Source of the DNA: Gracilaria domingensis
Taxonomy: Eukaryota; Rhodophyta; Florideophyceae; Gracilariales; Gracilariaceae
Direction of reading: 5' to 3'
DNA: 64,000 nucleotides
Assembly: GCA_022539475.1 (NCBI GenBank)
Contig: VCMS01000120.1
Span: forward strand, 162,916 to 226,915
This document shows positions 41,747 to 63,331 of the stretch, in pieces. Numbering within the stretch: position 1 is the first letter of the stretch; the number at the start of each line of letters is the position of its first letter. Both the position numbers and the translations under genes were made by a program. A model generated the notes under the pieces. The model was given only the letters and a program-made list of their open reading frames with translations, was not told the origin of the DNA and made no database searches.

Positions 41747-43746
41747 AGCTTCGCAGCCAATCTGCGGAGGTTTCGATTCCGCAGGAGCGGCTACAGTTCC
41801 ACCCTTCGATGGCACCGTTTGCTGGTTTCCAGGTTGAGTCTCCGCCTCTGCACGAAGGTACGATTTGTCGGGAACGTGTGCCCGTTCGGGGGGCGTCAAC
41901 GACTCGTATTGAGGCAGGATCTTCGCTATATCCCGTATGGGCATTAAAAGTTCGGAGCGATGTGTCCATGCCTGTAACAGGTGTGGAAAATAAGCTGCCG
42001 GAGAAGATCCGGATTCGGCTGACGGCGCTCCTGTCGTGGAGGATAGGGATCCCCACAACCAGGGCGTTGACTGCGATATCCACCAGCGTGTGGCACGTGC
42101 AAAGCCGGAACGTGTTGTCCGGTGTACAGAGCGGGATCTACGTCAACAGTAGACGACTCCGTCGTTGACGGCAACTCCGTAGTCGGCATTGAACCATCAG
42201 CCTGTAACAGGTGTACAATGTCACTCATACCCCCCTTGAACCGAACCTCGCGATAGAGGCAAAGAAGAGTCCCGGCCTTCTACATGAAGGAGGCGGCGCG
42301 TGGGCGTCTTGACACCAGCGCGTGCGCGAGCTGCATCTCGCTCGGCTTGGGCAAATTGTACGAGTTCCAGATAGGTGATCCGGCGTTTGCTCTCGCGATA
42401 ATTGGCTACCACCCTCCGAATTGATCGGTCCACTCCATCAACAAACATCGTACACCGCTCAGCTGCGGAGAACACGTTGCCACATCTGTGGAAAGCCTTG
42501 TTGAGGCGGGTAGAATAAACGGTTTCCGACTATTCGGCTCCTTGCTTCGTGTCTCGCAGCGCGAGTATAGCACCCTGTATCGCATTGCCTGTCGCGTAAG
42601 AGCACAGGAGATATTGTACCGCTTCCGGCCAGCACGTGACTCCTCCTTCGGAGGCGCGAGACGAACCTCGAACCGAATTGAATTGATCTTCGGCTACGTC
42701 CGTCAAAAAGTACGGCAGCGCAATGTAGGCCTGTGCCTCACTCATCCGAAGTACATCGGCCTCCGCCACGAAGCGTCCAAGAAAATCCAAGACAAGAATT
42801 GGATCTTCCCCAGAGAACTTGTGGGGCTTTAGCGTGAGCTCCATTTGTCGGAGATGATTTCGCACTTTGCCAGTCCCACGTGAGGTCCTCTGTGGCGTCG
42901 TGTCATCAAGCCGATAATAACGGTACGATAGCAGCTTCCGATACAGTAGATTTGTCGGCTTCAGTTCCTTCAATCCAAGGTGTCTCCGTCCTTTCGTACG
43001 GCCTCGTGCGACACCAGAAGTGGCTTCAGTAGCCGCGAATGGGAAGCACGCTGGCGAGAGCGATGGTTCTCGCTGTCCGATGAGTCGGGTGAAGATCCCA
43101 CATTTTGGGCTTCCTCTTCTGAAGAGGACGAAGAAGACGAGTCAGACTCAACCTTGACCTTCTTCCTTGCCGGACGATCCCAAGAACGGCGCGAGTGCTG
43201 AGAACCCTCAGAAACCGGGGCTCCCGGCCCAACAGCATCAGATACGATGATTTGCTCGACCGTCTCCAGACGGATAGCCAGGCGGTCCAGGCGTGCCGAA
43301 GCCTGCTCGTGCAGAGCAGCCGACACCTGTCGGTGTTCCATAATCTGGTTGACATCAGACCTTAAAACACGAACGTCGCTCGAAACATCCCCGACACCGG
43401 CTTCATCGAGCCGTTGCCGGAGTTTCGTAATATCCCGGATGAGGCCCACTTGGGAGTTCTGCAGGATGCAAACATGAGCCTCTAATTCACGGAGGGTGTA
43501 CTCGTCGGACCGCGACGACATAACGTCAACCGCTGCGCCGGAATCAGCGACAGGTGCGGTTTCAGTTGGCCCACCAGTGGGTGGGGTTCCGTTATCAGAA
43601 TGGAGGCCCCGGGAAGCCGGTTTCGAAGCACCATTACCGGGGACCTTGAGGGTGTCCTTCGGCAGCGGGGGCAGGCTTGCCCGCAAGCCGGACGAACCGA
43701 GCACAGAAGCGGCACGTGGCACGCCACTCCTGCGACGGGATGACAT
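41735..43746 (-). pseudogene. Gag of element B, frameshifted
   Basis: ATG at 43746 (MSSRRRSGVPRAAS). The N-terminal part is Ser/Asp-rich with a coiled-coil-like stretch. The capsid domain (GGVTCWPEAVQYLLCSY, CTMFVDGVDRSIRRVV) is homologous to Gag A. The zinc-knuckle region near 42000 is degraded (HTCYRHGH). Frame breaks occur near 42970, 42530 and 42230. The last codons are CAG AAA AAC TGA, the same as in A. Confidence 0.82.
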
Positions 43747-43813
43747 CGTTCACCGACACAGTCGGCCAATTGGCAACCAAAACAACTTCCGAAAACGGAC
43801 AATGAAAGAACCG

Positions 43814-44473
43814 TAAGAACGGATATTCCCAACTATCTGGGCTCCAAACAAACGAACCAACTCCAACAATTGTTGGCCAATAAAGCTAATTCTAGGTGCA
43901 ATCCCACGAGTGGGAAAACAAGAGCCGCGTCGCGGAAAGCGCACCTACAGGGTGTTCGGAACCTGCTCTCTATAGGGGTATATGCAGCAGTAGAACCCTC
44001 TGATAGGGTCAGCGCGATGCCGGGTGTAAATCCGGGTGGCCCCGATCTGAGCGTGCAGTCAGAGGTGAAGGGGAGGAATCGGCGTAGGTATCCGGCTGTT
44101 CCGGCGATCCACAGCGAGTGGAGATATCCAGCCTAACGGTAGGGAGCAACAGGGGATCAGCAAACGAGCCGCACTGCGGAGCACTGACTTGTGATAGACG
44201 GGAATAAGTCCCAAGACTAGTGGGCAAAAACCTGTATAACAGGGCAGAGAAACGAGAGCCGTATGACGGAAATAATAACAAAGAAACAACAAAAGATGTC
44301 GTAACGACGGTTTAGAACTCCTCAGTGGTAGAGGTTGGATGACTAGCCCGGAATTGTGACGGCCTGCCTGATTAGGGACGAAGACCGTTCACAAGAGGCA
44401 AGAAAGTCAGAGCCAGAAGCCTCCTTGAGGTTTACTTCCGGTACAGTGGCGGCAAGTGTCGCCACCTATATAG
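43814..44473 (-). repeat. 5' LTR of element B, first 660 bp
   Basis: It matches 32927-33588 of the 3' LTR and stops abruptly after CTATATAG. The rest of the LTR is not here; a matching remainder begins at about 63058. Confidence 0.88.
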
Positions 44474-45796
44474 CGTCTGTCTCTTACAGATGCTAGGTTT
44501 TGGCGAGGGTCGTCCAGTAAATTTTTTGAAAAAATAGCGAGATCAATTATTTCAAAATTTGGAGATAATTGCTTGGGTCGTCTAGAATTGCTGTGCAGTA
44601 AATACTGGTCGGTTTTCCGCTCCTGCTAGTTCTTTAGTCGAGGGCTATCTGAACGGTATTTCGCAAAGTCTAGGTTCAGTTTCCATTAAGGTGCACATTA
44701 CACGATACCTTCTGCGAAATGATACCCTGCAACGCATGGAATACTGGTGCTAGTACAGATGATGCCCATTATGAAATCATACCGCTTAATTCGTATCTAT
44801 TCTTCTATCGATCGCTTTTGCTAACCACTACCTCGCTATATTACATGTACTATTTCCCCATGATGAAGCGGGTGTAGGCGCAATCTGCGGCAGATGCCGC
44901 AGACTGCACCTCCACCAAAGTGCGGTATCGGTAGAACACATACGCACTCCGAGAGGATGAGGCGCTTCGCGCCTCATCCTCTCCGTTCTTCATGTAGGGA
45001 ACCATGCCCAGATGCATGGTTCCCTACTTAAGAAACCTGCACCTGCAACTCGTGAGCTACGTCCGCATCAAAAGTCATTTACCTTTATGCGCAAGCAGAA
45101 AGTATCCAGAAGTTAGTCAATGCTCCATTGGATACATTTGAAATGCGATGGAATGTACCATTGATAAAGCAAAACAGAAACGTTGCGCTAGAAAAATCGA
45201 GGGACCTAGTAAATCGCAAAAGTAACCCACAGTTCATTTCCTGCCGTTTACATGTCGCAGAGCGCGAAGAGACTTGGTGAGGATTGGTTAGTATAGAACA
45301 AAGATACGTAGAAGGATATGGAAGCACGTACGAAAAGACTGCACGGAATACATCCGTGAGATACGGATGATGCCCGCTTTATGGAGGCGTCCAATAGGCT
45401 GACATGAAGCGTACCTCATTCTCTTCCTCGCCCTATACTTCTTAGCAAGTGCGAGGGCGGAGAAAAGTACGACGGAGCGCCGTTCGTGACCCATGCCATC
45501 CACATCCTCGCGTTCTACTCCGGCGGAGTAGAACGCGAGGATGTAGATGGCACGGATCAAGACGGTAACGGTAGGTCGGACGCCGGAGGCGCGGCGGCGG
45601 CGGTGGAGGGAAGAGATTTATTTTTCTGTGCGAGATTGGACAGGTGTACAGCGTACAACGTTTCGAAACCACAGGTTTATAACCAGTGGTAGATAATACG
45701 AGAAGTACACCCTTGTGGTGAGGTCGACCTGTACCTAAGTTCTATTTTGAACGAAGGCACGTGATTTAAACTCAAAATATATTCTCCGTTCTCAGC
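44474..45796. other. Left flank of the large insert with a hairpin cluster
   Basis: No gene. It has strong hairpins at 44884-44903 (9 bp arms), 44951-44983 (15 bp arms, TTC loop) and 44994-45027 (13 bp arms), and an odd palindrome at 45496-45550 (27 bp arms, one mismatch, one-base centre). Such subterminal hairpins are usual transposase-binding or replication structures in large DNA transposons; that role is inferred. Confidence 0.5.
45496..45550. repeat. 55 bp palindrome with one-base centre
   Basis: 45496-45522 and 45524-45550 are reverse complements except one C/A mismatch, around G at 45523. The form is the same as the 18145-18239 palindrome, but here no coding origin is evident. Confidence 0.85.
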
Positions 45797-48700
45797 ATGA
45801 CGTCGATCTTGACTGTCGCCCGACCTAATTCTCCCTTCGGAGGACCTTCTTTTGCCGTCTTTGTCTTCCTTTCTCCTTCATTTCTTTATCCCATGGTCTA
45901 CTACTGTACACATAAGAAGCGTGGGTGCCCGTTCGTTACTCGCCGAGGAGTGTTATCTCTTGAACAGCATGTCAACCATTGCTCGTTTCGTCTGAAAGCC
46001 GCTCCAGAAGACGACAATAGGCGGCCCATTCGAAGAAGCAAGCGTCTCAAGCTTTCCGCGCCCGCGCCGGCATCTTCCGAAACGGTCACTGCCACTTGTC
46101 GCCTTCCCGAGCCTCCGGTGTCCGAGGACATTGTTGACCCCACTCCGTGCGCCCCTCCCATTACGGACACTTCGCTTTGGGTTTCTCCTTCCCCGGGTCC
46201 CGCGTCATTAGAACGAGAACACGGAAGCAGTTTCCGCCCAGTGCCTTCTGAGGAGGCCCTTGGTGATTTGCATATAGATTATCTCACGGTTTGTCTGGCT
46301 TCAGTAGCTTCCAACCATGGTCATCGTGAAGCAGACGAGCTAATTGGGCTACTTCGGGACCCGCGATTCTCGCAAAAGCGATTCAACGAGACCATAACAA
46401 GTTCCAAGCGCCGTACAGAACTGAAGAACGCCATTTTCGAACGATACGCCTCAAAAGACGGTTTCAATCGAAGAACTGTCTCGCCAGAAGGATGTAAGTT
46501 CAGCGCCACCCTCTACACGAGAGACCCCGTTCAGACACTTGTGAAACAGCTCCAGTTGGCTAACAACAAAAACACATTCTTCCACCCTCTACCTCAGACC
46601 CACTCCACGAAAATATCTCACCCCATGTCCGGCTCTCTCGCAAGAGATGCCACCTCAAAACTTAAGGAAATGGTCATGGGCTCTTTGGAAAGTAGAATAC
46701 TGTGGTACTTCCAAGAAATAAGTTACAGCGAATCTTTCGTAGGTCTTCTGCAGGTATACACCGATAAGTCTTCAACAACTCTAAAACAAATATCGGTTAC
46801 CGCCTATCCTCTTCACCTCATATTTATCAACTTCTCCGACGAGCTACGCCGTAAGTGCATCCGTGATGACCTCACAGTAGTGGCATACTTCCCTACCACA
46901 CTGATCGAGGTTTCCGCATCTGAAGCAGACGCAATGCCATTCGTTTCTAGCAAGTCTCTACGTGAGTCCAGGATACATATCCTTCAAGAATCTCTTCGTC
47001 AAGTCCTGGAGCCCATTCTAAATCTCACGCAGAAAGGTTTTCAGTTCATCGGCGAAGACAAACTAAATCGAGTGTGCCATCCTCTGCTTGCAAGGTACTG
47101 TGCGGATATTCCTGACGCTAAGGAAATTCTGTCCATTCTTCATGGGACCAAAACGGAAAGCCCGTGTCATAGATGCAAAGGCCGTCGCTCATCTTTATGC
47201 AGTCCTATTCCCACCTCATTCATCGGACGTTCTCAAAAGCACACGAAAAGCATCCGAAAGACATACACAGCTATCTTGCAACATGCACAAAAAGACGAGG
47301 CGGAAAGACGTCCACGTCGTGCGAGGGAGAGGAGATCTCAGGCGGATACTCTGATGCATCGGAAAGCCCGTGTCATAGATGAAGGCCGTCGCTCATCTTT
47401 ATGCAGTCCTATTCCCACCTCATTCATCGGACGTTCTCAAAAGCACACGAAAAGCATCCGAAAGACATACACAGCTATCTTGCAACATGCACAAAAAGAC
47501 GAGGCGGAAAGACGTCCACGTCGTGCGAGGGAGAGGAGATCTCAGGCGGATACCAGTTCCTCGAAACTTCTGTAAGCCTTGGAATGATCCCGGGATTGTC
47601 TCCATACAGTCTGTTCTCATTCGAACCGTTACACAACTTGCATCTCGGCATCTCGAAGCTGATTTAAAACGGCCACAATCGAGAGACTGCAGTCAGACAC
47701 CCTGTACACCACAATAGAAACATCTGCATCGCGTTCATTTCGATCGATACGCACCCAACTCCTCAACCATGCAAACGCAATTCTAGCTGCCATAGAACGC
47801 GATTCTTCTGCCAAAGGTTTACCTATCGATTTCTCCACGCAGGAGAAAGGCAAATCTTTGAATGGTATCTTCACGAAAAACGGTCTCCGTGGAATGCTGG
47901 AGGCCAAAAACTACAAAGCACTCGACATGGTCTTCCCCTTCATAGGAGCATTCTTTGACATATGCTGTGGAGAACAGGACGTTGCCCCAATCACAACTGT
48001 TTCCTCTCAGTACTAGGACTTGCTTTCGACCTTATTCAGATACAATCGTGACCCGTATTGGACTGAAAGCTCTCTCCTGTGTCTTAGTTCGGAGATTGAA
48101 GCCTTTAAGCGTTCCGCAACAAAGACTCTGGCGGATTTTCATCCCTCCAGACTGGGAACTCTGAAGTTTCATATTCTCGATCATCTCGTGGACGATATTC
48201 GCCGTCTGGGAAGTATCAAGTACTACGACGCAGGCATATACGAACATGCACACCTGCTATTTAAGAGACACTACAAAAAGACGTCCAGAAGAACAGCAAC
48301 GGCTGTGGAGGAGACTATTCGCTCCATTGAGCACGGACATGTTAGAAAGCAATGGAATGGCAATACTCCTTACCAGCGTAATCCAGGTTTACCAGGAACT
48401 TCCACACAGCTCCCTCGATTTGCAATGAGAGGGCGTTCTTTCACTTCACGAGCTCTTCAACATTGTGTTTCAAGTATTTGCAGTTCAAAAACATTGACTT
48501 CTGTTAGAGAGATGTTCTCAAGTACGGACACAAGGTCGATTCTTGACCAAATTGGTGAACAGGCCCTTCCTCCTTTCCTCAGTCTCGTGAAAGAAACACT
48601 GGATGAGCACTCTATTACAAACTTCCCAGAAAAGACAAGAATAACTCTGGTGAATTCGGCCCTCGTGAAAGGCGATTTCGTTCCGACTCTTAAACACTCC

Positions 48701-49241
48701 GATTCGTCTTCTAAAGCATTTAAGCTGGGACGACCCAAATACCCCATCATCCAACGAGTCTTCTTCTCCAGCATTTGGTCCCAGTAGAAAGCCAAAAAGT
48801 TCCACTGTATTTGTAAGCGGAGAAGATTCAGAGACTTGGGTTGCCCAGGTAGTCGCTCTGAATCGAATATCTCTCCATGATTCTGCACTTACCGCACCAG
48901 AGGTGGCATTCGTCCGGTATTTCGAGGTTTTACCCCCCGCAACAAACATCGACCACATATTAAAATGCATATCTTTACGGTGGGCTACAAACGATGGAAA
49001 GAACCACACTCTTCCGTTCCCTCGTCATTCCAAAGCGGAGACTATCGTAGAGTTAACTCCTTGGTACGGGATGGTTTCGGCTTCTGCACTACAGGGAACT
49101 GTCCATGTTGTTCGATCAAACTACCCTGCTCCACCTTTTTGTCCTCCACTTCAATGGTTTCAACACCGATTCTACATCAATCGATTCTATCATGATTCAG
49201 ATGAAGGACCAACTGAGCACGTTGATCTTGTACAGCCTTAA
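45797..49241 (+). pseudogene. EnSpm/CACTA Plavaka-like transposase, disrupted
   Basis: ATG 45797. The N terminus has a C2HC-type finger (CPFVTRRGVLSLEQHVNHC). Then a long Plavaka/KDZ-type core: HPLLARYCADIPDAKEIL with PCHRCKG, YSLFSFEPLHNLHLGISKLI, KFHILDHLVDDIRRLGS, YDAGIYEHAHLLFKRHYK, and near the end QWFQHRFYINRFY. This order matches fungal and algal Plavaka transposases of the CACTA superfamily (cut-and-paste, DDE). Breaks: a tandem duplication at 47155-47553, frame changes near 47330-47680 and 48780, and TAG at 48014-48016. Before decay the protein would have been roughly 1,100 residues. Confidence 0.65.
47155..47553 (+). repeat. Tandem duplication (about 195 bp x2) inside the transposase gene
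   Basis: 47155-47349 repeats at 47361-47553; the second copy lacks CA in GATGCAAAGG. The near identity of the copies means the duplication is recent compared with the decay of the ORF. It adds a second PCHRCKG-adjacent block and breaks the frame. Confidence 0.93.
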
Positions 49242-49327
49242 ACATTAAGGGCTCCATCTTCTGCACGATCACCTTGTGGTGCCTTTTCTTGTGATCCTGT
49301 GCTACTTCCGAAATCGTTCATGTCCAT
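49242..49327. terminator. Convergent 3' ends of transposase and coiled-coil gene
   Basis: Under 90 bp separates the plus-strand transposase stop and the minus-strand stop at 49328, so poly(A) sites must overlap. No clear AATAAA was noted. Confidence 0.25.
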
Positions 49328-51636
49328 TTACTTGAACTCCATATCCCCTTCCTCGCATTCACCAACAAAACAATCGCTAATAGACCCCAATCTTCGGCTC
49401 ACACTGTCAATAAAAAATTGTTCTTTCACAGTGAGGTAAAGTCTTCCGTTCGACGGCATTCGATAACCAAATGTAGTCTCTCTCATGTCATTACCAAGAA
49501 CCTTAGTCCAACCTTCCGTTGTCGTTCCATAATTATGAAACTCGCTGGAATTGGTCTTCAAGACATGTTGCCTAACATCCCCCAGAACATTCTTTAAACA
49601 CAGAGGTAGCAGTTGGGAAAACTTCTTTGTAAACAGTTTCTGTCTCTGCCCACCTCTTAACACATCCGTACTTAGAAGGCTCACAACCGTCAACACCCAA
49701 GCGTCCAAACGTGCGAGCAACAGTATTGTGCCATCTAAAAAGGTGCCCATATCCTTGTCTTCCACATCATACCCAATAAACTCCTTCAGTACTTTTACCC
49801 CGACACGATTTTGGAAGAACAAGTCTTGATCTTCCGTCGGCATATCCTCGACATTGTCCGCATTGGAGTACTTTAGACGAACAAATAGGGCTTTTCTCCA
49901 CCATGAAGTGTTCGGTACACCATTTTCGTCGAGACGCAGTATGTTCTCCTGCGCTTCCTTCAACTGCATTGTGAGTTCGTCAGCATTCTCTTCTACCAGC
50001 TTTGTTCTTCTCCAAATCAGATCGTACCCCAGGAGCAGAAATAGTTTATCCCTCGTATTTCTGTTCCGAACGCCAACGACGTCACTCATGGTTTGCCGCA
50101 ATCTCTGCCTAAGGCATATATCTGCACAAAGTTCCAGTATACACCTGTCGGTAAGAGATGCTTTTCTAATACCTTCCCAGCTCAACTCCTTCAACTCGCT
50201 TTCAACCATTTTCTTCAGCAAAGCATCTGGCCCCAGCTCTACGGAGGTTGTGAACATGCCAAAACTGCCCAAGAGCTCCACGGGGTTTTTTAGGAACCAT
50301 GTATGAACCACCTTTCTCCGGCTCAATAAGCCCTTCCCACTCTCAGTTACATCTTCCACCTTCTCGGCACGGTTACCCCAATTTCGGGTGAGCGACTCAC
50401 CTTCGAGCCATAGCTCACTTGTTTCTTTCCTTGCCGACGTCAGCATGTTGTGATACACTGCTCGAGCAACCCCTCGAAACTCGTCGCACACCTCAATTTT
50501 ATGCTTCTTTCGACCTGTCTGCCCAGGTTCACCAGCACGTGTACTCCTATCTCCCTCCTGTTTCAGTGCCCCTCTTAGCCCTTCAATGACTAGATCCTTC
50601 TCTTCAAGCCTCTTTTTCAAAGCCGTACTCTGCTCTTGGGCGACCTTCACTAGAATTCCCCGAACCATCAAGTCCTCTTGTAGCGTCTTAACCTTTTCTT
50701 TCAAGCAATTCAGTTCATTGAAAAGATCATGTCTGTTCATAGAGGTTGAATTCACACCAGTGTGGATATCTTCCGGTATTTTCCTAGCCTCTTCGGCGAA
50801 AAGCCCCGGTAATGCCGCAGGATTCGATGTTATTTTGTTATCGGAACTATCCTCATGTGCCATACCCTTAGACACGAGAGGCTGCAGGCGTTCTGTGTCC
50901 ACCCTTGGCACGGCTCCGAGCTCCAACTCCCGTGTCTGTCCTCCTCCATGTCATCGTATATCAGATGAACTGAGCCTCGTACGAGCTGCAACGGCCCCCG
51001 TTCTGGAAAGAGGAGAAGGTCGAGGAGTAACTCGCCTATCAGTCGTCTCTCGATTTCTTATTGTCTTTCTCCCTTGTCCGGACCCATTGCGGGGCATAAT
51101 ACGATTCATAGCGGCCCCAGTTCTAGAAGACAGAGAGGGACGTGACGATCTTAATATATTAGGGTTCTCACGACTTCTCGTCATTTTCCCTTGTTGTCCA
51201 GATCCACTGGGCGGCGTAACCCGCGCCCCAGTAGCTCCGCTCTTCGATATCGGCCGGGGACGTGAAAGTTTTGGTGTCATACGAACCTCTTCAGTTCCAG
51301 TTGTCATGCCCTCCTGTCCTGAGACCCGCTGGGCCGAGTTACCTCATCTTCTTGGGGAGCAGAGACAGATGCAGGATATGCATTATAGGAAGTTGACGGC
51401 ACGACGTCGTTCGCTCATCCACGAATTCTTGACGCAATCCCGGAAGACACTCCGCTGCGAGATGGGCGAGAGAGCACTGTAGAAAGACGCCCACTGACTC
51501 TCTCCTTCGTCGTAGACGACTTCCGTTTAGGAAGTGCGGTGCTTGTAGCATGATTCGTATCATCCGATGCTCTTCTCTTCTTCTGTCCACTCTTGTTCCG
51601 CTGCGTACTATTTCGCTTTCTCGGCGTTATACCCAT
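49328..51636 (-). pseudogene. Basic coiled-coil protein of the large insert, unknown
   Basis: From 51636 the minus strand starts MGITPRKRNSTQRNKSGQKK, strongly basic and NLS-like. After a frame change near 51310-51400 it holds three diverged repeats of about 37 residues around the pattern S(R/K)(S/T)GA...R...P..GSGQ. An in-frame TGA (50951-50953, from CGA) separates this from the 530-residue remainder, which has a coiled coil (LNCLKEKVKTLQEDL, KKRLEEKDLVIEGL) and a globular C-terminal half of unknown type. I recognise no family. By position it could be the DNA-binding accessory (TNPA-like) protein of the transposon, which is inference only. Confidence 0.5.
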
Positions 51637-51884
51637 GTCGTGGAGATAAACGGGGTAATGAACGAAATTGTTGGGGGGGGGGAGGGGGTGGGGGGGGGGG
51701 TGCGTGGTTCAGATATTCCGGGAGACTCCGCAGTTCCTGCTTTTTAGGAATTTGAGGTGCCCAATGGGTCGCAAGTATCGCCGTTACAAATAGATGAAGA
51801 GCTCCATTGTACATGTACAACGCGTATAGCAGCCAGCTGCAACATTCACAAGCATATTTATTTTCTATTCGGTACTGCACTCAT
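51637..51884. other. Intergenic with poly-G tract
   Basis: It contains G runs at about 51671-51700 broken by single A and T, then unremarkable sequence up to the SET-domain stop. The G runs could form a quadruplex or be a sequencing weak spot. Confidence 0.3.
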
Positions 51885-54800
51885 CTATTGCTCCACTGTC
51901 AGAGCCCAGTCCCAGACGTACTGCTCTCCGTAGTTGAAATACAACTCTTCGCCCCTCTCAATATCTCTTACTGCTCTACAACGAAGTAGAGCATAGTTAG
52001 AAAGGTCGGACTTAAACTGTATCACGGACTTCGCTTCCACCATCTGCACATTGGCACTTCGAGTCATGTTCTACCGGGGCTGCGATAAATCGGGATCCCC
52101 GGCATGATATCCGGCGTCGTTAATGTAGCCCCCGATACAAAAAGGCGCCGGGACAATGTAGACTTTGCTCTCCTTTCTATCTTGAGCCTGTCCTGGTCTG
52201 TTCCTCAGGTGCAGAAACTCCGAACCAGTCACAGTGGCCATCATAGAAACAACTTGTACCGCACTGGAGTTGCTCCGAGACAGCCACTTCCATACGTTAA
52301 GTGCCTTTCCTTCCGGTTTGTCAGATCCGTGTATACCAAAGTTCCATAAAAATGGCAGATAGTTTCCCCAGCCAATATCTTATGTTCCATGAACACCCCC
52401 ATACCAGCACGGGGATGTCGAATCTTAGAAGATGCTACATGTAAGCGATAGCGATTGGCTTCAACAGTCAACAGCATATGCATATCCATTAGATTCAGAG
52501 CTCCTCGGTACTTCTCGTCACAAAGATCTACAGTATGCTGCCCACACTTGTCGACAAACTCCCAGCCCCTCCAGTATCTTCCTAGGAACTGAGAAATATG
52601 TGCAGGCATCACTTGGTACTGGGGGTATCCAAATGGAGACTTCCATTCAAGCCCACCTCGATCCTGGTGTGGAACCCGTTCATAAGTCGTTGAAGCAGCA
52701 TCCACCACCTCCTGTTCAACCACGATGTCATTCTTCCCCCGCGAAGAACTTCGGCCATGAGAGTCGTTATATGGTGCTTCGCATGGCTGAAACATGGCCT
52801 ATTCTTCTCGCACCCCAAGAACTTTCTATGCTTTGTCAGCGATAGGCACGCCACACCCGTAGAAAAAGTTCCCGCGAACATGTCAATGACAAGATCACCC
52901 GGTCTTGTGAACCGACATATCAACTCTTTCATCAACTCCCTGGACTTCTGCTCCGGTCTTATGTACTGCCCACTTGGTACTGAATTACCTGGCTCATTTA
53001 CCTTCCATGTCAACCACTCCCCCGCACTCGGTTTCGGCACCCGGTCAATTACATTCCTGTTAGCTGGGAAAGTAGAAGGAATGAAATTGTTCTCCTCAAA
53101 TGGAGTAAGACTGGCTTCCTCCGATGGTCGCAATCCACGCTTCACCCCATGAACGGCGTATTCCGTTACGGGCTGTATCCCAAACTTCCGTGGATTCACG
53201 CCAACATTGCGTCGATCCCGGATGAACACCAGAGGATTCCCATCCACTTTAAACGGAGGCATGAGTTCTGGCTTACCTTCGCTTCCAGCTTCATCTTTCG
53301 TACTCGCCGTTTCCGAGAGTATCCTCTGCCAAACATGAAACTGTGCCATGGCACAGAATCAAATGAAGTGCCCACCTGACCGAAGCGCGGAACTTATTAA
53401 GTCTGCCGTACTCATCATGTCATCCTCACTGAAGACATCATGAGCACTATTCCGTTTGCTCCTCTTCCTTCGAGTGTTAAAGGGAGGGTCTGTTAGGACA
53501 AGCTGGGCCTCACCCCATAAAATCTCACTCTGATTCACAAATGTTTCATATGTTTGCCTCAGGTCCTTCATGTCACAGTTGTACGCTACAAAGTGTGACT
53601 TTCTCATCCCCTTCCACACCTTGTCCATATTCATTCGAAGGAGACTGGATATCCCCTTCACGGGCGGCTCAATACCAGTCTTTTGGATGTTGTACCCGGC
53701 AACCCGAGATTCATGCTCCGCACGATTCACCGGCTTCTCAAAGTCGTCGCTATCGGAGCTCACGAGGTCCATATACTCTCGACGAGGTGGGGGTGGGGCA
53801 GACTTGGTCGAAGAAGGTTCGGCATTACCGGAAGTTTTAGGAGTTTTCGTCAGTTCAATATCGGGTTTCCCGTGAATGCCGACATGGAACCCTGCCGCAT
53901 GACGCATATCCTGTATTGGTTTCCATAGCAACTCCGAAAACTTCTGAAACCGAGCAGGCAACTCACCGGAGTCAGAACCAGATACGGTATCCATCCGTAT
54001 CTCCGAAAACTCTATCCAGTCTGTCATCTGATCAACCCGTAAGCTATAGAGGCTATCGTGGGTGCATATAATTTCGAGGTCTGTCAAAAATTCCTTAGCC
54101 AGTATTCGGAGGTTTGTATCGCATTCATCACTCAAGGTCTCCACCGATCCACTAGTACTGCTCTTTGGGACATCCTGTGTGTTGAATCGAGTACTATGGC
54201 TTGGCGGGGCATAACCAGACTTCCGTGTCTCTAACGCTGTATACTTCAAGGTCTGCATATTCATGTAAATGTATGGTTTCACCATGTGCTGAACGTTCGT
54301 GTATCCAAGATGAGCCGCAAAACAACTTCATGCCCATACGATCTCACTGATAGCGAATCCCAGTCGATCACAGTTGTCTTTGGAGAACGACGTAAAAGTT
54401 GGTATGTACACAGATGGTGCATGGTTCACTTTTCGTTTCTTTTTCGGTTGTTTCTTCTTCATCATTCTGATGTTGTCGTTCTCTCCCATTATGTGGCCGA
54501 GGTATGATAAGTATAGAACGATCTCAAATGGGTTCGCAGCTATTGGTGGGATGAACACTGTCGTCTTCAGAAACTGCTTTCTCCTGGTCATGAAATAACC
54601 AACCAGGCATCGCACCGGTAGGTATATACCCATATCCATAGAGAGAAGGAAATAATCGCGGAGTCTCTGGTCCTCATCCCCGTCCTTCTTGTCAAGAAGC
54701 TTCGTCACAAGATATCGTTGCTCTACAGGTTTGTTATTCATAACACTCTTTCGCAGCTGTTGCAGTGTCAAGTTCTGCAGGTTATTGGAGTTAGTGGCCT

Positions 54801-55020
54801 CCTCAAATATCTTCCTTTCCTCCGGAATATCCTTATAGGTCTCGGCGCAGAACTCTATTAGCCCTCTAAACCCCACGTCCCGCGGCCGATCAGGGCCTCC
54901 ATCGCTGTTTGCCAAAGCATCGCGAAGAACCAAGAAAAGTCTGACATATGCATGGAACGCCGAAGGCGGAGCACTCATGTCGATAGGATGTGTCTCTTCT
55001 CCATCATCGGTGGAATCCAT
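51885..55020 (-). pseudogene. DNA amino-methyltransferase fused to a SET domain
   Basis: From ATG 55020 the same minus-strand frame runs through TGA 54328-54330 and TGA 53359-53361 (both CGA-derived by one change) to about 52750, shifts frame at a G run, then shifts again. Residues 1-230 are of unknown fold. Near residue 510 is LVLTDPPFNT, motif IV of N6-adenine/N4-cytosine methyltransferases. Near 711 is DLVIDMFAGTFSTGVACL, motif I (SAM binding). Order IV then I marks the beta class (CcrM/N4CMT-like). A SET domain follows: AGMGVFMEHKILAGETICHF near 870, GGYINDAG, then SNYALLRCRAVRDI and GEELYFNYGEQYVWD at the C terminus, with TAG at 52071-52073. About 1,045 codons in all. Predicted role: methylate DNA and a protein/histone target. 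Confidence 0.72.
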
Positions 55021-55316
55021 CGCTTCAGCGCAGAGAACGGAGGCGAGCCTTTAAATGGCGACTTACGCTGGGCACCCCCGCTTTCGGCAGCTCCTCCGAG
55101 CGCACTGCCAGTCTCATCCGTGTCCCTGTCCGATCCCTTCTGAGGTCGGTGTCCATGCCGCTTTGAGCGGGTGCGATAGCGTCGCGTATCGGCCACGTCG
55201 CGATTCGGAGCTATTGCAAAGGTCGCGTATGGTGCTAATAGTCGCGGACCAAGTGGGTGTGAAGCGCTAGTTTTCTCTAGTTTGATATATGTGAACGGCG
55301 TGTGCAGCGAAATCAC

Positions 55317-55643
55317 TGCCGGAAGTGCCGGGAGGAGTGTTTTGGGAGGTCTCCGGAGGGTGCCAGAATGTGACCAGAACGTGCCCACCGGCGGGGGGGG
55401 GGGGGGGGGGGGTGGTCGGTCGTGTTAGGGTAGGTATCCTAACACGACCGGACCCCCGCCCGCGGGCACGTTTTGGGCGATTTTTTGAAAAATGTGCGAT
55501 TTTGTGCCAGCGGGCGGGGGGGTCCGGTGGTGTTAGGGTACCTACCCTAACACGACCGACCCCCCCCGCCCGCGGGCACGTTCTGGCCACATTCTGGCAC
55601 CCTCCGGAGACCTCCCAAAACACTTCTCCCGGCACTTCCGGCA
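55317..55643. repeat. 327 bp inverted repeat between divergent genes
   Basis: Arms of about 150 bp, outer ends TGCCGGAAGTGCC and its complement, with few mismatches. Each arm contains its own inner inverted repeat (GTCGTGTTAGGGTAGG and partner), so a cruciform with side stems is possible. A run of about 20 G lies near 55391-55412. It separates the methyltransferase-SET gene (minus, starts 55020) from the ParB-like gene (plus, about 55820). Confidence 0.92.
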
Positions 55644-55821
55644 CCCACCGCGTCACCTCAGTGCACCATCCCGTCTTCTCCATCCCTAAAACGCTCCCTA
55701 ATTCCCACGCGCACCACACCTACCCTCTAGTAAAGATTAGTTTACTGAAAGTTACAAGTTGTTTCATAGCTTACCACTAGACTACGAAAGACTGCTATCG
55801 ATGGCGCTCTTAGGTATTGCT

Positions 55822-58190
55822 GCGCCAGGGGCGGCCGCCGGGCTATCGGCGTTGCATCCAGTATATTACTCCGTGGAGTAAGTAAACGCCACGTTGAAGC
55901 CCTTGTGAAGAGTATGGAGGAGCGGGGGATATTGCATTCGATTGGATCTCCAGTGATGGCCTTACAAGATGCTGCTACGGGAGAGAGGGATACTGAAAAG
56001 GGACGCCTAACGAGGAAGTGCTTCCTTGTAGATGGTTTGCATCGTCTGAAAGCTATACAATATTTGGCAGCGACTGGTGCACCGAAGTGGAAACGATTAG
56101 CCAAGTTTTGGCGTTGCAATCTGCTTATACGAAGAGATGGGAGGCCCATTGGGATGAAGGAATTGTTATGTGTTGCTTCGTACTTCAATGAGTCGAGGAG
56201 TACCATGCGAAGGATGATGTTTGCAGACAAGATACACTCTATAGTTAGTGTGGTCGCCATTCTAATTGAAGATGTTGAGGGGGTGACGCCGGCAGACGTG
56301 GATCCTGCAGAAGTGACAGAAGTGTTGAAGGAGAGCCAACTGATTGGGACTGTGCAAGAGCGTCAGTATCTGAGATATGCCAATGTTGCCCTGCAACTCA
56401 TGTCTCGTGAGGGAATGCTGGCCCATTTCGAGGATATATGTGAGACTGTGAGTGACATAGGTCTCACGCATCTGTCCCATACTCCGCTATATGTTTTGGA
56501 TGCCGAGGAGTTTTCCTTCATTCTTGACTGTCTTCAGATGTTTCTATTGAAGGGCAAGTCGACGAAGACGAAGCAATGGAAAAGCTTTGAGGAGGTTCGA
56601 GGTTTCTTTTATGATAGAGCAGTGTCTCTGTCCCGCGCGGCTCGAGCAGTGAGGAATTAACTGAACGAGGAAGAGTCCATGGTAGTGTTCCTCAAACGCG
56701 AAGTCAGTCTTTCTGCTCCATCGAATGAAGATGACGTTGAAGACCCAGACAACAACGCAGCTGTGTATCAGTTTCTTTTGGGACAAGTTGTGAACTTCAA
56801 CACATTGCCGCGTGTTCGGAGCAGGACGAACTCAATTAGAACTGCCACGACTTCCGTTCAGAATCGATTGCGGACGATGCTCAAGGTAATTCCGCCGCCC
56901 GCACCAGTGAAGCAGTCCGTGACGAAGAGGAGGACTCCGGCTGCTGCTGCTGCAACATCTGCCAGTGAAGAAGGGGAGCCGCGAAGAAGTGCAGGAGAAC
57001 GGGCGCAGGTGAGATATAGGGAAATTGAGCACGGCCGAAGTCGAGGTGCCATAGAAGTTCTGGATAGCTCTGAAGAAGAACAGCGGGCTCCGCCGAGGAA
57101 GAAACAGAGAAAGACTTTCACACAACAGATGAGATCTACTCTAAACAGCATGACGCCGGATGACCTGATGTCTCAACTAAATGAACATGTGCTGAGAGGA
57201 AGGTCGATGAAGGTTCAGTTCGTGGCATTGGAAGAGGGAGGGAATGCAGAGAACGCAGGCAGTTCTGCATTTGTGGATGACGAAGAGCTTCTTGCTGTGA
57301 CAGTTCCACGGGTTGTCACCGTCGAGAAAGATGCTGCGCCAGACGATCAGCAAGAGACAGGTGGGGGGTTATTTGATGACGAGTTACCTACAGCTCTTCC
57401 GGAATCTGAGGAGCACGGACTTCTTCGAGGAGACCCATATGATGGCCCACTGAACCCATCATGGTGCGGGTATGTCAGGTTGAGACCGCAGGAATGGCAA
57501 GGGAAGAACGTAATTGAGCACAAGGACCCCTGGCTCAGAGTCATTCACTTGCCGAAGGGACATAGGTTGGAGCTGCTAAGTGTCTCGAATATCAGAGATG
57601 TACACCATCTTGTGTTTTGGCACGCTACAAGGGCTGAACATCGCCTACGGGTGGAGATATTTGGTATGCAGTATCCTCGTACTCGGCCGACAGGTATGGA
57701 TGATGAAGAGGTGCTGTGGGTTGCTGCGAAGGAGCATGACGAATTTGGGCAAATGTTCTTCGCCCGAATGCAAGCTGAGCTAAGGCAGAATGGATATTGC
57801 GTGCTTGATGGCTTTGCGACGGATAATGGTGTCCCTAAATGGGGGGAGTTGGAAGAAGTTCGGGAGTTCGGAGATGTGTCGGGGAAGTTGGTGGACTTCT
57901 TCGAGAATGAGTATGGAGCGATGCCGGATATACGTAAAGGAGAGGAACAGAAGTCGTTTGTTCAAATCATCAACGATGATGAAGGATGGAAAGACGGTAG
58001 CGATGGACCATTTGAAGGGAGAGTGATGTCGACACGTTAGGGTACGGTGGAGAAGGCGGAGGACAATGAGGAGCTCAGGTGGGTTGTAAGGTCGCGTGCT
58101 TTACTTGATGTTCGAATGGGTACAATCATGAAACTCTCGGCATCCTCTATATCTCGCCCAGTAGCAATTCCGAACCAACGCGTGCATTGA
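55822..58190 (+). pseudogene. ParB-like domain protein, long, with two nonsense codons
   Basis: One frame from about 55822 to 58190 with TAA at 56658-56660 and TAG at 58038-58040; both are one C-to-T step from Gln codons. The N terminus reads ILLRGVSKRHVEALVKSM, GILHSIGSPV, then KCFLVDGLHRLKAIQYL, matching the ParB/Srx fold (basic loop, then D-G-x-H-R-x-x-A). Middle: Ala/Glu-rich linkers and an NLS-like PPRKKQRK. The C-terminal 200 residues, with GYCVLDGFATDNGVP, are unassigned and may be an oxygenase-like fold. The true start is unclear because no in-frame ATG precedes the ParB motif. Phages often pair ParB-like domains with DNA methyltransferases, and the fusion gene lies head to head here. 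Confidence 0.55.
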
Positions 58191-59054
58191 TATACTTCAT
58201 GCATTTGACTGTTTCGGCAGGGATGTTGTCCCCAGCTCTTTTCAGAGTACTATAAATTTCACTAATCACGGCCTAGCCATTTTCGAATATTTCGTTAGCC
58301 AGCTGCTGAGGAGTTACTTCTTGGGCTCTAACTTCTGATTTATACATGTTTTGAAAGCTTTCGAAAGGGCTCGTTTTGCAAATGGGTGTGAGTATACGAA
58401 TGAGAAGGATGTGATGGATGTTCACAAGGTGTTTCGTAGTATAAAAAGAGTCTAAGAACGACCATATACGGGTATTGTAGTACTGTTTTAAAACGTTACT
58501 AGGACGAGAAGCTTTTGCATCGATTTGCAGTAAAGAGAGGATGATTTAGTCATAAATTATATGTACGGGCTCAAGTGGGTAAAGAAAACTATGAATATCT
58601 TCAACATGAGCTTAGAAATCAAGAAAAGTAAGAAAACCTCCATTAGGGGTTGAAACCCATAAAAGGTTTACCTTACATTATACGTGTGCCCGAAGTATTG
58701 CAAAGGCTTAGTTCTTCAGAAATATCACAATTTTGTACTTGTCTCGTTACTAGTATCGTGCACTTTAATGATGTGGGAGGACCCTTTTCCATCTAGCAAA
58801 AACTTAGCCAGGTATTAGTGATAAGGGATGTAGGATTTAAAAGGGCATATTTGAACCACAGAAGGACGAACAATATAAGTAATGTAATAGGAACAGGTCA
58901 TTTCAATAAAGTAAATTTTATGTCTAACTATGTCTAAAGGTTCAGAACACCGAAAAGTCATGTGTTCTAACCTCAAAGCTGGAGGAATGGGAGGGAGATA
59001 ACTTTTCCTTAACAACATTGACGTAGTTTGTATGAAAAGGAGCGGGGTCACCGC
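58191..59054. other. AT-rich intergenic region
   Basis: About 860 bp with no supported ORF. It contains many short A/T runs and the 3' ends of the ParB-like gene and the reductase-like gene. Confidence 0.3.
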
Positions 59055-59873
59055 CTACGATGTCTCTTTCTTGGCGGGAAAAGTCGTAGAAGTACGCGTT
59101 CCTAACTGAAAGTCGGAGAAAGAAGTAGGGAAGCCAACGAGAGTTTTATCATATGCAAGAAGTCGCCCAACGGTCTCTTCCAGGTTGAAAGTAGTACCTG
59201 TCTTAAGCGAAACTATCTTCAACAGCTCTTTCATTATTGTGAGCACAACCTTACTGCACTCCGTAGCGACTACGTCCATAGGAATGAAACCTCTTGAGGC
59301 CCCGACGATGTTGAACGCTGATAGCCACACGAGCTTCTCATAATAGCTTACGAAAGATGTGTGTTCGTCGACAACCCCGCAAGTGAGACCCATACATCTA
59401 AACCTGTCTGCAACGTTGGAGGCCCACTTTCCTGTTGCGACAGTGAGACCATCCGGACTTTGAGGAGTGACACCATCCTGCGGAGCTGCGTTTCTTGAGG
59501 GGACACCAACGTAAAGGACAACTTTTGAACATTTGTCCACACCGAGCTTCGAAAGCAATGGTATGATGTCTCCATTCTGGAAAAAAACGAGATTCTCTCT
59601 GAGCGAATAAGAGCAAGCCTGAATTACGGTCTCCAGGGTGTTCGTTCTTCCACAAACTAGCATCGGTACATCAGAAAGATGAGAGGGAGCAGCCATGCTG
59701 CAGAATTCTTGTGCGGAAATGACCATATCTTGTTCGTTCGCCAGCATGGTACCTATACGCCCCCTTCCAACAATAACGGCCCGAGACCTTTGGGTGGGAG
59801 ATCAGGCCTGAGGGACGTCAGAGTATCTGGGACTCGGAGGCGGAGTCGGAGGCATGTCGGACTGGAAGTTCAT
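59055..59873 (-). pseudogene. Ketopantoate-reductase-like NAD(P)-binding protein
   Basis: From ATG 59873 (MNFQSDMPPTPPPSP) the frame meets TGA at 59802-59804, then continues RAVIVGRGRIGTML, a G-x-G-x-x-G Rossmann motif, VFFQNGD (the family QNG motif), YYEKLVWLSAFNIVGAS (C-terminal domain W-x-K-x-x-x-N-like helix) and FPTSFSDFQLGTRT (S-x-x-x-D-x-x-x-G-R-x-T-like end). This resembles the PanE/ApbA family, which reduces 2-oxo acids with NADPH. Catalytic Lys and Glu positions could not be confirmed. A downstream start could bypass the TGA but would lose part of the Rossmann fold, so a decayed gene is more likely. Confidence 0.55.
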
Positions 59874-60327
59874 TGCAAGTGTTCGATTGTTCTTGTGTGA
59901 CGATAAAAAAGGAAGATGGGGCGGAGAACTGCTGGGGTAAAGAGTGATATTTAAGTACAAACGGTTGGGCAGCGCAGAACGGGAACTTGGTTCACCTTGT
60001 GAAAGTGAGCGAAATGTATAATATGTGATTGTACTGAAAGAATGATAAAGCTTGTATGAGACGAGAAGCCACAAAGTGTGGTGATGTTTTATGAAAAGTA
60101 GGTGGAAGAGTAGAAAGTGTACAATGAATGAAACAGAATTCGAACCTGAGTTGTAAAGTACGAGTTACGGGGAGCTTGAGTACAGGATAAAAGGAGCCAT
60201 TTTGGCTTCATAAATGACGTGAACGGGTTCTATAGCTTCACTCGGATTGCCATAGTACTCTTTATTATTGAGGTATAAAAGAGGTGTGTGTCTGGGAGAG
60301 ACGGGTTTGGGGTTGCTGAAGTTACCG
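59874..60327. promoter_or_regulatory. Divergent spacer between reductase-like and epimerase genes
   Basis: About 450 bp of AT-rich sequence between two divergent starts (59873 minus, 60328 plus). It includes TATAAAAG at about 60274, 55 bp upstream of the epimerase ATG, a plausible TATA box. Confidence 0.4.
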
Positions 60328-61035
60328 ATGTTCAGTATGGATTCTCGTTTATTTATAGCGCCATCAATTTTGGCTTCAGACTTTGCTCGCCTTTCAGGTG
60401 AAGCGAGTGCAATGGAAGAGGCTGGAGCGGACTGGCTGCCTATAGATGTAAGGGATGGTCATTTTGTGGCGAACCTTACTGTTGGACCGCCTGTTGTGAA
60501 AGCGTTGCGGAGGCATACAAAATTGTTTTTGGACTGACATCTGATGGTATCAGATCCTGGGCGATGGGCAAACGACTTTGCATAAGCAGGCCCAGACGGA
60601 GTCACATTTCATATCGAGAGTGTGGCTAAGGGACTAGAAAAGTGCGAGGTACCAACTGAGGAGGAGAACGTGGTGTTGAAGGAATTATGTAACCGAATTA
60701 AAAGGATGGGAATGCAGGTTGGAGTTGCGTTGCGCCCGAATACGTCTATAAAGGTCGTAGAAGCACTTATGAAGGAAGGAGTTGTAGATATGTTATTGTT
60801 GATGACGGTGGAGCCAGGGTTTGGAGGACAGGCGTTTGTGGAGGGTGTTCTTGATAAGGTGCGACATGCAAGGGAGTTGTACCCAAGAATAGGGATACAG
60901 GTGGATGGGGGTATTGGACTGAGTACTGTGAAAGGAGTAGTGATGGCCGGTGCAAACATTTTAGTTGCAGGATCTGCTATCTTTGGCTCGAGTAGGCCAG
61001 CTCATGTCATAGCTGGTTTTCGAAAGGTTGGTTAG
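60328..61035 (+). pseudogene. RPE: Ribulose-phosphate 3-epimerase with two stops
   Basis: ATG 60328 (an alternative is 60337). The frame has the family order: [13 protein letters not shown] (N-terminal Ser/Asp), [20 protein letters not shown] (metal-binding Asp and His; the usual DVMDG is DVRDG), stop TGA at 60536-60538 where LD-C-HLMV is expected, HLMVSDPGRW, stop TAA at about 60581, HIES, then VALRPNTSI, LLLMTVEPGFGGQAF, IQVDGGIGLSTV and AGSAIFGS. It would interconvert ribulose-5-P and xylulose-5-P in the Calvin and pentose-phosphate pathways. It is unbroken apart from the two nonsense codons, so the loss is recent or the copy is non-functional beside a working one elsewhere. Confidence 0.85.
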
Positions 61036-61075
61036 AGATAGTAGCATAAAATTATTGTTTATTACATTGTTACCT

Positions 61076-61450
61076 TTACGTGTTATCACGACTATATTCC
61101 CCGTCTCCATTGGAGATGTATTTCTCTTGTGTCACAGCCGGGAAGGATGTGAGAGAACATAAATATATCCCCAGTGGACGCTGAGAGGGAGGATGAACTA
61201 CTCTACGTGCTATCATTGTTACCCATCCGGTGTCGAGTGGTGACATATTCTTTTTTTGTGACAACCCACACAGGATGTGACAGAAGAAGAAGATGCCCCA
61301 GTCGAGACGGAGGGTGAGCTACTCTAGGTACAATCACTAGTCCCCAGCTTGCCTCCACTGGCGATATCTTCCTGTTTTGCCATAACCACCGAGTGAGGTT
61401 ATGGCGGAAGAGAAAAATATCGCCGGTCGAGGCGAGGTGGGTGGGGACTA
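61076..61450. ncRNA. Three tandem imperfect hairpins (RNA-gene candidates)
   Basis: Three successive units of about 110-120 bp each fold back on themselves with 70-80% pairing: about 61095-61190, 61225-61315 and 61335-61445 (loop near ACCGAGTG, tip stem GCCATAACC with GGTTATGGC). Each is flanked by a CTACTCTA-like link. The units are similar in layout but diverged. They could be miRNA-type precursors or a triplicated MITE. No expression evidence is available. Confidence 0.4.
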
Positions 61451-61672
61451 TGTGAGCGCGAAAGAGGAGACAGAGGGGTGGCGCTAAATAGTGGAAGGTG
61501 CGGAGGTGTACAGTAGATCTTTTGGCGGGAAATGGGATGAGGGAAACAGGGACAATCATGATGCTCGATATAGCCCGTGTGGTTGGACAGTCGGGGTCGA
61601 CAGCACAGTTTAACTCGATTGCACTGTATCGCAGCGGAAACTTCGATCCAACTACTACTTCTTCTTCTGAAG

Positions 61673-62560
61673 ATGTCAAACGGATACGTGAAGGATGAGG
61701 AGCTGTTGGCGCTGTTGGAGGGGAAGGAGGTACCGCCGACGCGGTCACCAAAGCGGGAAGAGGACGTGATTACGGCGGCTGGTCGGATGTCGCAGAAGAA
61801 GGAAGTGGCCGATGAGGAAAGAAGTGTGAGGCGAGGAGAGGGGATGGTGATGAGGTGGAGAAGGGTGTGGAATTGGAGGTGGAGGGGGTCGCAATGGGAG
61901 AAGGGGTACGGTGCATCTCAGTCAGTTCGAGGTTGGAGACCAGATAGAGAGTGGGGGCGGAGAGGGTGACAGGGAGATGCGGTTTGTGGGGGAGATGAAG
62001 GCGAGGGTGGGGATGTTGGGGTTGGTGATGAAGGAGCGACTGGACGATGGAATTGTGGAGATTGTAACGGAAATCAGTGCTGTGGTGCTGAGTGGGGGTG
62101 GTAGTGGTGTTTTGGTTGAGGCGATTTCGAGCCTGCGGAATTCGTTGTCGGTATTGGGAGTGGAGATGACGAATCATGTGTATGGGATAGTGGAGTGTAC
62201 GGGAGGAAGGTTGGAGAGTTGCGGGAGAGAATAGGGTTCTGAACGAGAGGTTGGACGTGCTGGAGAAGGAGGTGAAGGAGCTGGGCAAGAGGCAAAGATT
62301 GGTGGAAGAGGAGACGGTGAAAGAACGTGTGGAGGGAAAGACGGAGAAGGGAAGTGCGGGAAGGGTGGCGGTGCAGAAGGGGTCCCTGTAACACCGAAGA
62401 CAAAGGGTGGTGGGGTTGGGATGGGAAGAGCCGTCTGGAGAAGAGGCGTAAGGAGATGAAGAAGGTGGTGGAGGAGGTGCCGCGGGAGGGAGTCGGAGCT
62501 CCGGTGGTGACTGGGTTTAGGAGTGCTGCGGAGGTAGCGCGGACTGCGAAGGGATTCTGA
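61673..62560 (+). pseudogene. Degenerate charged/coiled-coil ORF
   Basis: From ATG 61673 (MSNGYVKDEELLALLEGKEV) the frame is open to about 61969. Other plus frames downstream keep Glu/Lys/Leu-rich heptad-like sequence (NERLDVLEKEVKELGKRQ near 62240-62300). The G-rich plus strand with very few T makes long ORFs easy by chance. I cannot assign a family; it could be a frameshifted N-terminal part of a retroelement Gag or a host coiled-coil protein. Confidence 0.3.
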
Positions 62561-63057
62561 GCGGACAGGAGGGGAGAAGTATGGGAGGGATGTGAAGCCG
62601 TTTTGGGGCGAGGCGGGTATACGAGAATGGGGAGAGTTGCCCACCTGACTTCTACAGAATGACGTTTGCGGAGACGGAGAGGGAGGTGGCGAACGCGTGA
62701 TGGGCGAGAAATGGGTAAAGAGTGGGGGTGGTGTGGAATGGGAAGAATGATGGGATGATTGAGGTGAGATGAGTTACGATTGGCATTGCAACATGGGAGA
62801 AATGGAAACGCAAACTAGCACGAGCGCAGTTTTGAGAGAGGGTTACGGAAAGACTGGATGGGTGGTGAGGCGAAGTAGAACTCTACAAAAACTCAGAGCC
62901 CAAGAATTAAACTGTGCGAGATGGAATTAAATATTTCCAATTTCTTATTTTTTGAGTGCCATCTCTCCACCCTCGGCGCGCCTAAATAGCCAAAAACTAG
63001 GCTTAGTTTCGAAAAGCAGAACCTAGAGGACTATATTCCACTTTGCAGAACAAGACG
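62561..63057. other. Right flank of the large insert
   Basis: No gene. Near 62990-63020 the minus strand reads CTAGGTTCTGC and GCCTAGTTTTTGGC, which loosely echo GCTAGGTTTTGGC and TCTAGGTTCAG at the left end (44492 and 44668). Possible diverged subterminal repeats. Confidence 0.3.
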
Positions 63058-63331
63058 AGGGACTGGAAAATTATCACTAGAAATATCTAACTATCCGGCC
63101 GCTGCCGGCCAAACTCCTACACGTAGCTGAAACGTGGCAGGCTTGCCACGCGCGCACCCGCATCGGCCAGACTACCAGCAAAGTGGTGCAAAAACTACTC
63201 TTCCTATGCATACCCAAAATAGGGCCACTATACAGTAGCCTCTCATTAACATGAAGTGGTCGAAGCCGGTCCGATCAACAAACTATGAAGAGACACCTCG
63301 GTGCATTCCACAACAGGGCGTTTGCTCTACA
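63058..63331 (-). repeat. Second part of a B-type LTR
   Basis: It starts AGGGACTGG and ends TTTGCTCTACA, matching 33587-33861 of element B but with frequent one-base insertions and deletions. It begins exactly where the LTR part at 43814-44473 stops. Confidence 0.85.

What the first reader, a model, noticed from the sequence alone, without database searches (positions are those of the whole stretch)
51885..55020. Transposon-borne DNA amino-methyltransferase fused to a SET domain
Seen: motif IV DPPF then motif I DMFAGTFSTG in one frame, followed by SET landmarks (GxG, YINDAG, GEELYFNYG) on the same strand, after frame changes. Known: the beta-class order IV to I is that of CcrM and of the N4CMT acquired by bdelloid rotifers; SET domains methylate lysines. 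Inferred: a single protein that could write both DNA and histone marks, perhaps so the element controls its own chromatin. I do not know of a described family with this pairing on a Plavaka-like element.
Basis: partly seen in the sequence, partly recalled or inferred. Interest (0 to 1): 0.9.

Follow-up and report, generated by a model that had tools for sequence, protein, structure and literature searches.

The report
SET-fused DNA methyltransferase in seaweed transposon
A large, many-copy jumping gene, most likely in a red seaweed, encodes a single protein that joins a bacterial-type DNA-methylating enzyme to a SET domain of the kind that methylates histones, so it may be able to mark both DNA and chromatin.

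Summary

The carrier is an 18.6-kb Plavaka-type transposon (44474-63057) with similar inverted ends and a 2-bp AG duplication. The host is most likely the red alga Gracilaria domingensis.

DPPF favours N6-adenine; structure alone does not decide. pN/pS among 7 open copies is 0.26 (methyltransferase) and 0.32 (SET). Activity is untested, and the SET NH motif reads ND in 35 of 40.

Best reading: a transposon-encoded dual writer of DNA and histone marks on element copies; leading rival: SET is only a reader. Ten literature searches showed no such pairing, but key papers were not held.

The parts
44474..63057 (.). whole Plavaka-type element (18.6 kb), flanked by AG at 44472-44473 and 63058-63059; borders inferred from end motifs and homology
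   Evidence: left end motif at 44473-44496, expected by chance 0.03 in the window, 545 genome hits, 0 control hits; right end motif 572 hits, 0 control; flanks read; homology to other copies
44474..44496 (+). left terminus CGTCTGTCTCTTACAGATGCTAG
63030..63057 (-). right terminus; commonest listed genome form begins CGTCTGTGTTCTGCAAAGTGG read inward; the window copy is slightly degenerate
45770..48787 (+). Plavaka transposase remnant (several frames, with a 172-nt internal duplication); over 30 of 83 listed genome copies show a 1100-codon frame
   Evidence: PF18759 E 2.8e-15 on 45770-47575; copies; duplication
49328..51640 (-). gene C: unknown protein (832-codon stop-to-stop frame in L034), in several frames in the window; borders approximate
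   Evidence: no Pfam family up to E 0.5
51885..55020 (-). DNA methyltransferase-SET fusion gene, broken copy (three stops, two single-base deletions)
   Evidence: open copies
53479..53490 (-). motif IV DPPF
52855..52884 (-). motif I DMFAGTFSTG
51925..52440 (-). SET domain (GxG about 52405, YIND, GEELYFNYG); borders approximate
   Evidence: full-length domain in L034; fold
55317..55643 (.). intergenic region between the two divergent genes, with an 84-nt inverted repeat
55770..58126 (+). gene A remnant, divergent from the methyltransferase gene: weakly ParB-like part; 5' part missing here
   Evidence: PHROG ParB-like E 0.0025 on a fuller copy, E 0.057 on the window piece
58127..63057 (.). right-hand cargo region shared with other copies
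   Evidence: HAD hydrolase and ribulose-phosphate epimerase pieces in a homologous copy

Best explanation
A Plavaka-type DNA transposon of a red alga (very probably Gracilaria domingensis) carries, beside its transposase, a gene for one protein of about 1045 residues: a conserved, mostly helical N-terminal region, a beta-class (CcrM-like) DNA amino-methyltransferase, and a C-terminal SET domain. Shown by computation: the fusion exists in single-frame copies, it belongs to a diverse fused family, the copies bear the mark of purifying selection in both domains, and the gene lies inside the element. Inferred: the first domain methylates N6 of adenine in DNA and the SET domain methylates a lysine, most likely on histones. 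Together they would mark newly inserted or replicating element copies, so that the element sets its own chromatin state and stays expressible or is kept in check.
Confidence: 0.5

Rival explanations
1. Only the DNA methyltransferase is catalytic; the SET domain is an inactive reader or dock that brings the enzyme to nucleosomes, as the chromodomain does in rotifer N4CMT.
For: The usual NH motif of SET is ND in 35 of 40 rows; SET scores are modest (32.3 bits in L034). An amino-methyltransferase with a histone-binding fusion is known in rotifers (passages of PMC8885841).
Against: GxG (36 of 40) and the C-terminal Tyr (38 of 40) are kept, and pN/pS in SET (0.32) is near that of the MTase (0.26).
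Confidence: 0.28
2. The protein serves transposition directly: it methylates element ends or newly replicated DNA and so times excision, as Dam methylation does for Tn10 (recalled).
For: The gene often lies at a fixed distance from the transposase gene, and two copies 99.9% alike in protein suggest recent spread, unless they are assembly duplicates.
Against: Elements that have lost the gene or most of it share the same ends and 2-bp duplications (L177, L178), so it is not needed in cis. A SET domain has no obvious part in this.
Confidence: 0.14
3. Captured cargo that merely hitchhikes, like the metabolic gene pieces at the right end.
For: The element does carry an epimerase piece and HAD hydrolase genes.
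Against: The fusion recurs in relatives at 21-40% identity to L034, and element copies show purifying selection.
Confidence: 0.05
4. The methyltransferase acts on RNA or on a non-histone target.
For: Substrate cannot be told from fold alone.
Confidence: 0.03

Closest known systems
CcrM and other beta-class N6-adenine DNA methyltransferases (PF01555)
   Same: motif order IV to I, DPPY/F, fold
   Different: this protein has a region of about 450 residues before the methyltransferase and a SET domain after it
Bdelloid rotifer N4CMT (PMC8885841; abstract and passages seen)
   Different: N4CMT has SPPY and a chromodomain and is described there as captured from bacteria and depositing 4mC at transposons; here DPPF/Y, SET, and carried by a transposon
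TET/JBP-bearing Plavaka and other DNA transposons of fungi (Kojima 2025, PMC12730594; abstract, outline, passages and section 3.2 seen)
   Same: Plavaka-type elements carrying an epigenetic enzyme; 2-bp (or 2-3-bp) target duplications
   Different: that cargo is an oxygenase of methylated bases; here a methyltransferase-SET protein; termini differ (CGTCTG..CAGACG)
SET-bearing HarbingerS and MuDR transposons of oomycetes (cited in PMC12730594, passage seen)
   Same: a DNA transposon encoding a SET histone methyltransferase
   Different: no DNA methyltransferase fusion is mentioned in the passage; other transposase lineages
Plavaka giant repeats of Amoebidium (PMC11244446, passages seen)
   Same: [quoted passage not shown] some hits point to red algae and dinoflagellates
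   Different: cargo named there is tyrosine recombinases; no methyltransferase-SET protein is mentioned in the passages seen; homology not tested here

Membership tests
Beta-class DNA amino-methyltransferase (PF01555) | profile score above the curated cut-off | tested here: met
   55.8 bits against 26.7 in L034; matched by 40 of 40 rows at E<=0.05
Beta-class DNA amino-methyltransferase (PF01555) | motif IV DPPY/F (N6A) or SPPY (N4C) before motif I FxGxx | tested here: met
   DPPY 31, DPPF 6, other 3 of 40; motif I aligned C-terminal of it
Beta-class DNA amino-methyltransferase (PF01555) | DNA methylation activity and target sequence | not testable with these tools
   needs protein or long-read kinetics
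SET-domain proteins (PF00856) | profile score above the curated cut-off and SET fold | tested here: met
   L034 32.2 bits against 22.4; model pLDDT 86, the 50 PDB rows shown are all SET or PR domain entries
SET-domain proteins (PF00856) | SAM-site GxG and catalytic Tyr of the C-terminal YG | tested here: met
   L034 reads GMGVF and GEELYFNYG; GxG in 36 of 40 rows, Tyr in 38 of 40
SET-domain proteins (PF00856) | canonical NH of the NHxxxxN motif (recalled as absent from PR-type SET domains, hence not universal) | tested here: not met
   ND 35, NS 3, NC 1, gap 1 of 40; lowers the claim of catalysis, not of the fold
SET-domain proteins (PF00856) | lysine methylation | not testable with these tools
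   needs protein
Plavaka transposons | Plavaka transposase domain PF18759 | tested here: met
   56.8 bits against 26.3
Plavaka transposons | 2-bp target site duplication | tested here: met
   8 of 10 end pairs picked by eye, and AG/AG in the window
Plavaka transposons, subgroups A and B of Kojima 2025 | termini TGT..ACA or CATCA..TGATG | tested here: not met
   termini are CGTCTG..CAGACG; I file it as Plavaka-type by transposase domain only
TET/JBP-bearing transposons | Tet_JBP domain | tested here: inconclusive
   no PF12851 match, but the control rang nowhere; gene A has an HTD..H stretch with no Pfam family
Bdelloid N4CMT | SPPY motif and chromodomain | tested here: not met
   no SPPY in 40 rows; no chromodomain among Pfam matches listed

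The most novel reading that the evidence does not exclude
A eukaryotic family of single-chain dual writers, spread by giant Plavaka-type transposons, that methylate adenine in DNA and a lysine on histones at the same place, giving the element, and perhaps the host genome, a self-made 6mA-plus-histone mark.
Probability: 0.42. Interest if true: 0.93.

Novelty: new variant of a known kind. Interest (0 to 1): 0.78.

Why it matters
Mobile elements that carry single epigenetic enzymes are known; one protein able in principle to write both DNA and histone marks did not turn up in the papers I could search. It would offer a directly testable case of coupled DNA-amino-methylation and histone marking in a eukaryote, where 6mA has long been disputed (recalled), and would make transposons a source of new chromatin systems in red algae.

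Tried and rejected
Fungal host: assumed at first from the Plavaka match; dropped when gene A relatives at 94% and 89% identity were named Gracilaria domingensis and the 78-Mb size agreed (passage). Introns as the cause of the frame changes: dropped, since open copies read straight through. Host DNA-methylation genes: PF00145 gave 0 matches in an exon-by-exon search whose control rang in 10 of 14 genomes, all ten prokaryotes; but passages of a review report cytosine methylation in Gracilaria dura and Gracilariopsis lemaneiformis (PMC9861306), so I do not claim that the host lacks 5mC. MT-A70 and Tet_JBP: no match, but controls rang nowhere, so no conclusion. Gene A as a 2OG oxygenase: motif only, no family or PDB support.

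Papers: ten searches showed, in their listings, no title or abstract start on a DNA methyltransferase-SET fusion on a transposon; I opened passages of five papers only (PMC12730594, PMC8885841, PMC11244446, PMC10388701, PMC9861306). Two papers that I recall as relevant (Iyer and colleagues 2014, 2016) are not held, so priority is not settled.

Weak points of sampling: the selection test used 7 copies with 1055-codon frames out of 14 loci fetched for long frames. End pairs were 10 picked by eye from truncated lists; two lacked the duplication, one of them the pair around a 19-kb copy with the gene. The protein searches scored only the 7990 and 7984 candidates sharing most words. One of 83 Plavaka places had the gene on the same strand instead. 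The second look with the full model listed only methyltransferase rows, so SET was modelled alone.

Full report
What was checked. The window copy lies on the minus strand from about 55020 to 51885. Its pieces carry DPPF, DMFAGTFSTG, GxG, YINDAG and GEELYFNYG in that order. Piece 52612-53358 matches PF01555 at E 6.3e-12; the last SET piece reaches 21.1 bits, just below its cut-off of 22.4. Aligned to an open copy, the window copy is identical at 3005 of 3163 bases and is broken by three stops and two single-base deletions.

Relatives in the same genome. The methyltransferase piece has at least 152 matches in the genome (capped). I fetched 14 loci chosen for long frames. Seven of 14 carry a 1055-codon uninterrupted frame, and 8 of 14 show all four landmark motifs in one frame; in the other 6 at least one landmark is missing from that frame. 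In L034, PF01555 scores 55.8 bits (residues 515-752) and SET 32.2 bits (882-1041), both above the cut-offs. Nine copies compared are 93.8 to 99.9% identical in protein, pair by pair. Over 7 copies with 1055-codon frames, pN/pS is 0.37 overall, 0.26 in the methyltransferase and 0.32 in SET; the 21 pairs are not independent.

A wide family. Two protein searches gave 20 and 22 proteins, 39 distinct ones; each scored only the candidates sharing most words. Aligned with L034 (40 rows), all 40 match PF01555 and 37 match SET at E 0.05 or better, some below the curated SET cut-off. Motif IV is DPPY in 31, DPPF in 6 and something else in 3 of 40; SET keeps GxG in 36, the C-terminal Tyr in 38 and YG in 34 of 40; the usual NH is ND in 35. 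Identity to L034 is 21 to 40%. Pairwise distances in the methyltransferase and SET parts correlate at r 0.71 (39 rows), with 0 of 2000 permutations as high, as expected of one old fusion. The searches were made with the fused region, which favours finding fused relatives. No relative of the fusion has a named host.

The carrier. A Plavaka transposase remnant lies at 45770-48787 (PF18759, E 2.8e-15); over 30 of 83 listed copies in the genome show a 1100-codon frame. The left end motif has 545 genome matches (up to 2 mismatches) and the right end motif 572 (up to 3), against 0 for the patterns read backwards. The two ends resemble each other (CGTCTGT, then a TGCA core). Of 10 end pairs picked from the lists, 8 show a 2-bp duplication; the window shows AG on both sides. 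The one pair among the 10 known to hold the gene (C50) shows none. The element thus most likely spans 44474-63057. In 32 of 83 listed Plavaka places a methyltransferase or SET match lies within 12 kb on the other strand, 24 of them at about 4.9 or 5.9 kb; in one place it lies on the same strand. SET lies on the same strand within 2.5 kb of 104 of 150 methyltransferase matches. These are lower bounds, because all lists were cut. Two shorter, 10-kb elements with the same ends have lost the gene or most of it (L177, L178).

The host. Gene A of this element, searched in the protein database, gave two proteins, both named Gracilaria domingensis, at 94 and 89% identity. A paper gives 78 Mb for that genome (passage of PMC10388701), and G000 has 77.9 Mb. 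So the host is most likely this red alga; that is inference. No C5-DNA-methylase was found in G000 by an exon-by-exon search with prokaryotic controls, but cytosine methylation has been reported in related seaweeds (passages of PMC9861306), so that question stays open.

How it probably works. Shown: one protein, two conserved catalytic folds, carried by a many-copy transposon. Inferred from family knowledge: DPPF/Y with the CcrM fold suggests N6-adenine methylation of DNA; SET suggests lysine methylation. The most likely role is to mark element copies in both DNA and chromatin. The altered NH motif in SET is the main doubt; a reader-only SET is the leading rival.

Comparison and novelty. TET/JBP enzymes on Plavaka and other transposons (PMC12730594: abstract, outline, passages, section 3.2), SET enzymes on oomycete transposons (cited there), the chromodomain-fused N4CMT of rotifers (PMC8885841: passages) and Plavaka giant repeats in Amoebidium (PMC11244446: passages) each share one side. 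In the listings of ten literature searches I saw no report of a DNA methyltransferase-SET fusion on a transposon; most subscription papers are not held. I rate it a new variant of a known kind, with an architecture that may prove to be new altogether.

Noticed in passing
window 55770-58126 (+); fuller copies in L156 and L040:1152-2476: Divergent partner gene with a weakly ParB-like part (PHROG E 0.0025) and, in C164, a C-terminal stretch with HTD and a later H that looks like a 2OG-oxygenase; no Pfam family. If real, the element would carry both a writer and a possible eraser.
   Followed up: partly
window 58127-63057; L040:2725-6836: Right-hand cargo: HAD hydrolase genes (PF08282) and a ribulose-phosphate 3-epimerase piece (PF00834, E 1.1e-25) in a homologous copy; a frame at 59055-59801 that looks reductase-like by eye, without a Pfam match.
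   Followed up: partly
window 55317-55643: 84-nt inverted repeat with smaller nested ones and GTGTTAGGGTA units between the two divergent genes; several rearranged copies of this block within other loci.
   Followed up: no
window 47178-47553: Perfect 172-nt direct duplication inside the transposase frame, 204 nt start to start.
   Followed up: no
window 38980-43749 (-): Retroelement frames next to the left end of the element; reverse transcriptase and RNase H domains in 38980-40197 (PF00078, PF17917).
   Followed up: no
G000 contigs C6, C12, C157, C382 and others: Further PF01555 matches that are not among the listed copies of this family, several in frames of over 1000 codons: perhaps other methyltransferase families of this genome.
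   Followed up: partly
L177, L178: About 10.3-kb elements with the same ends that lack most or all of the methyltransferase-SET gene: deletion derivatives.
   Followed up: yes
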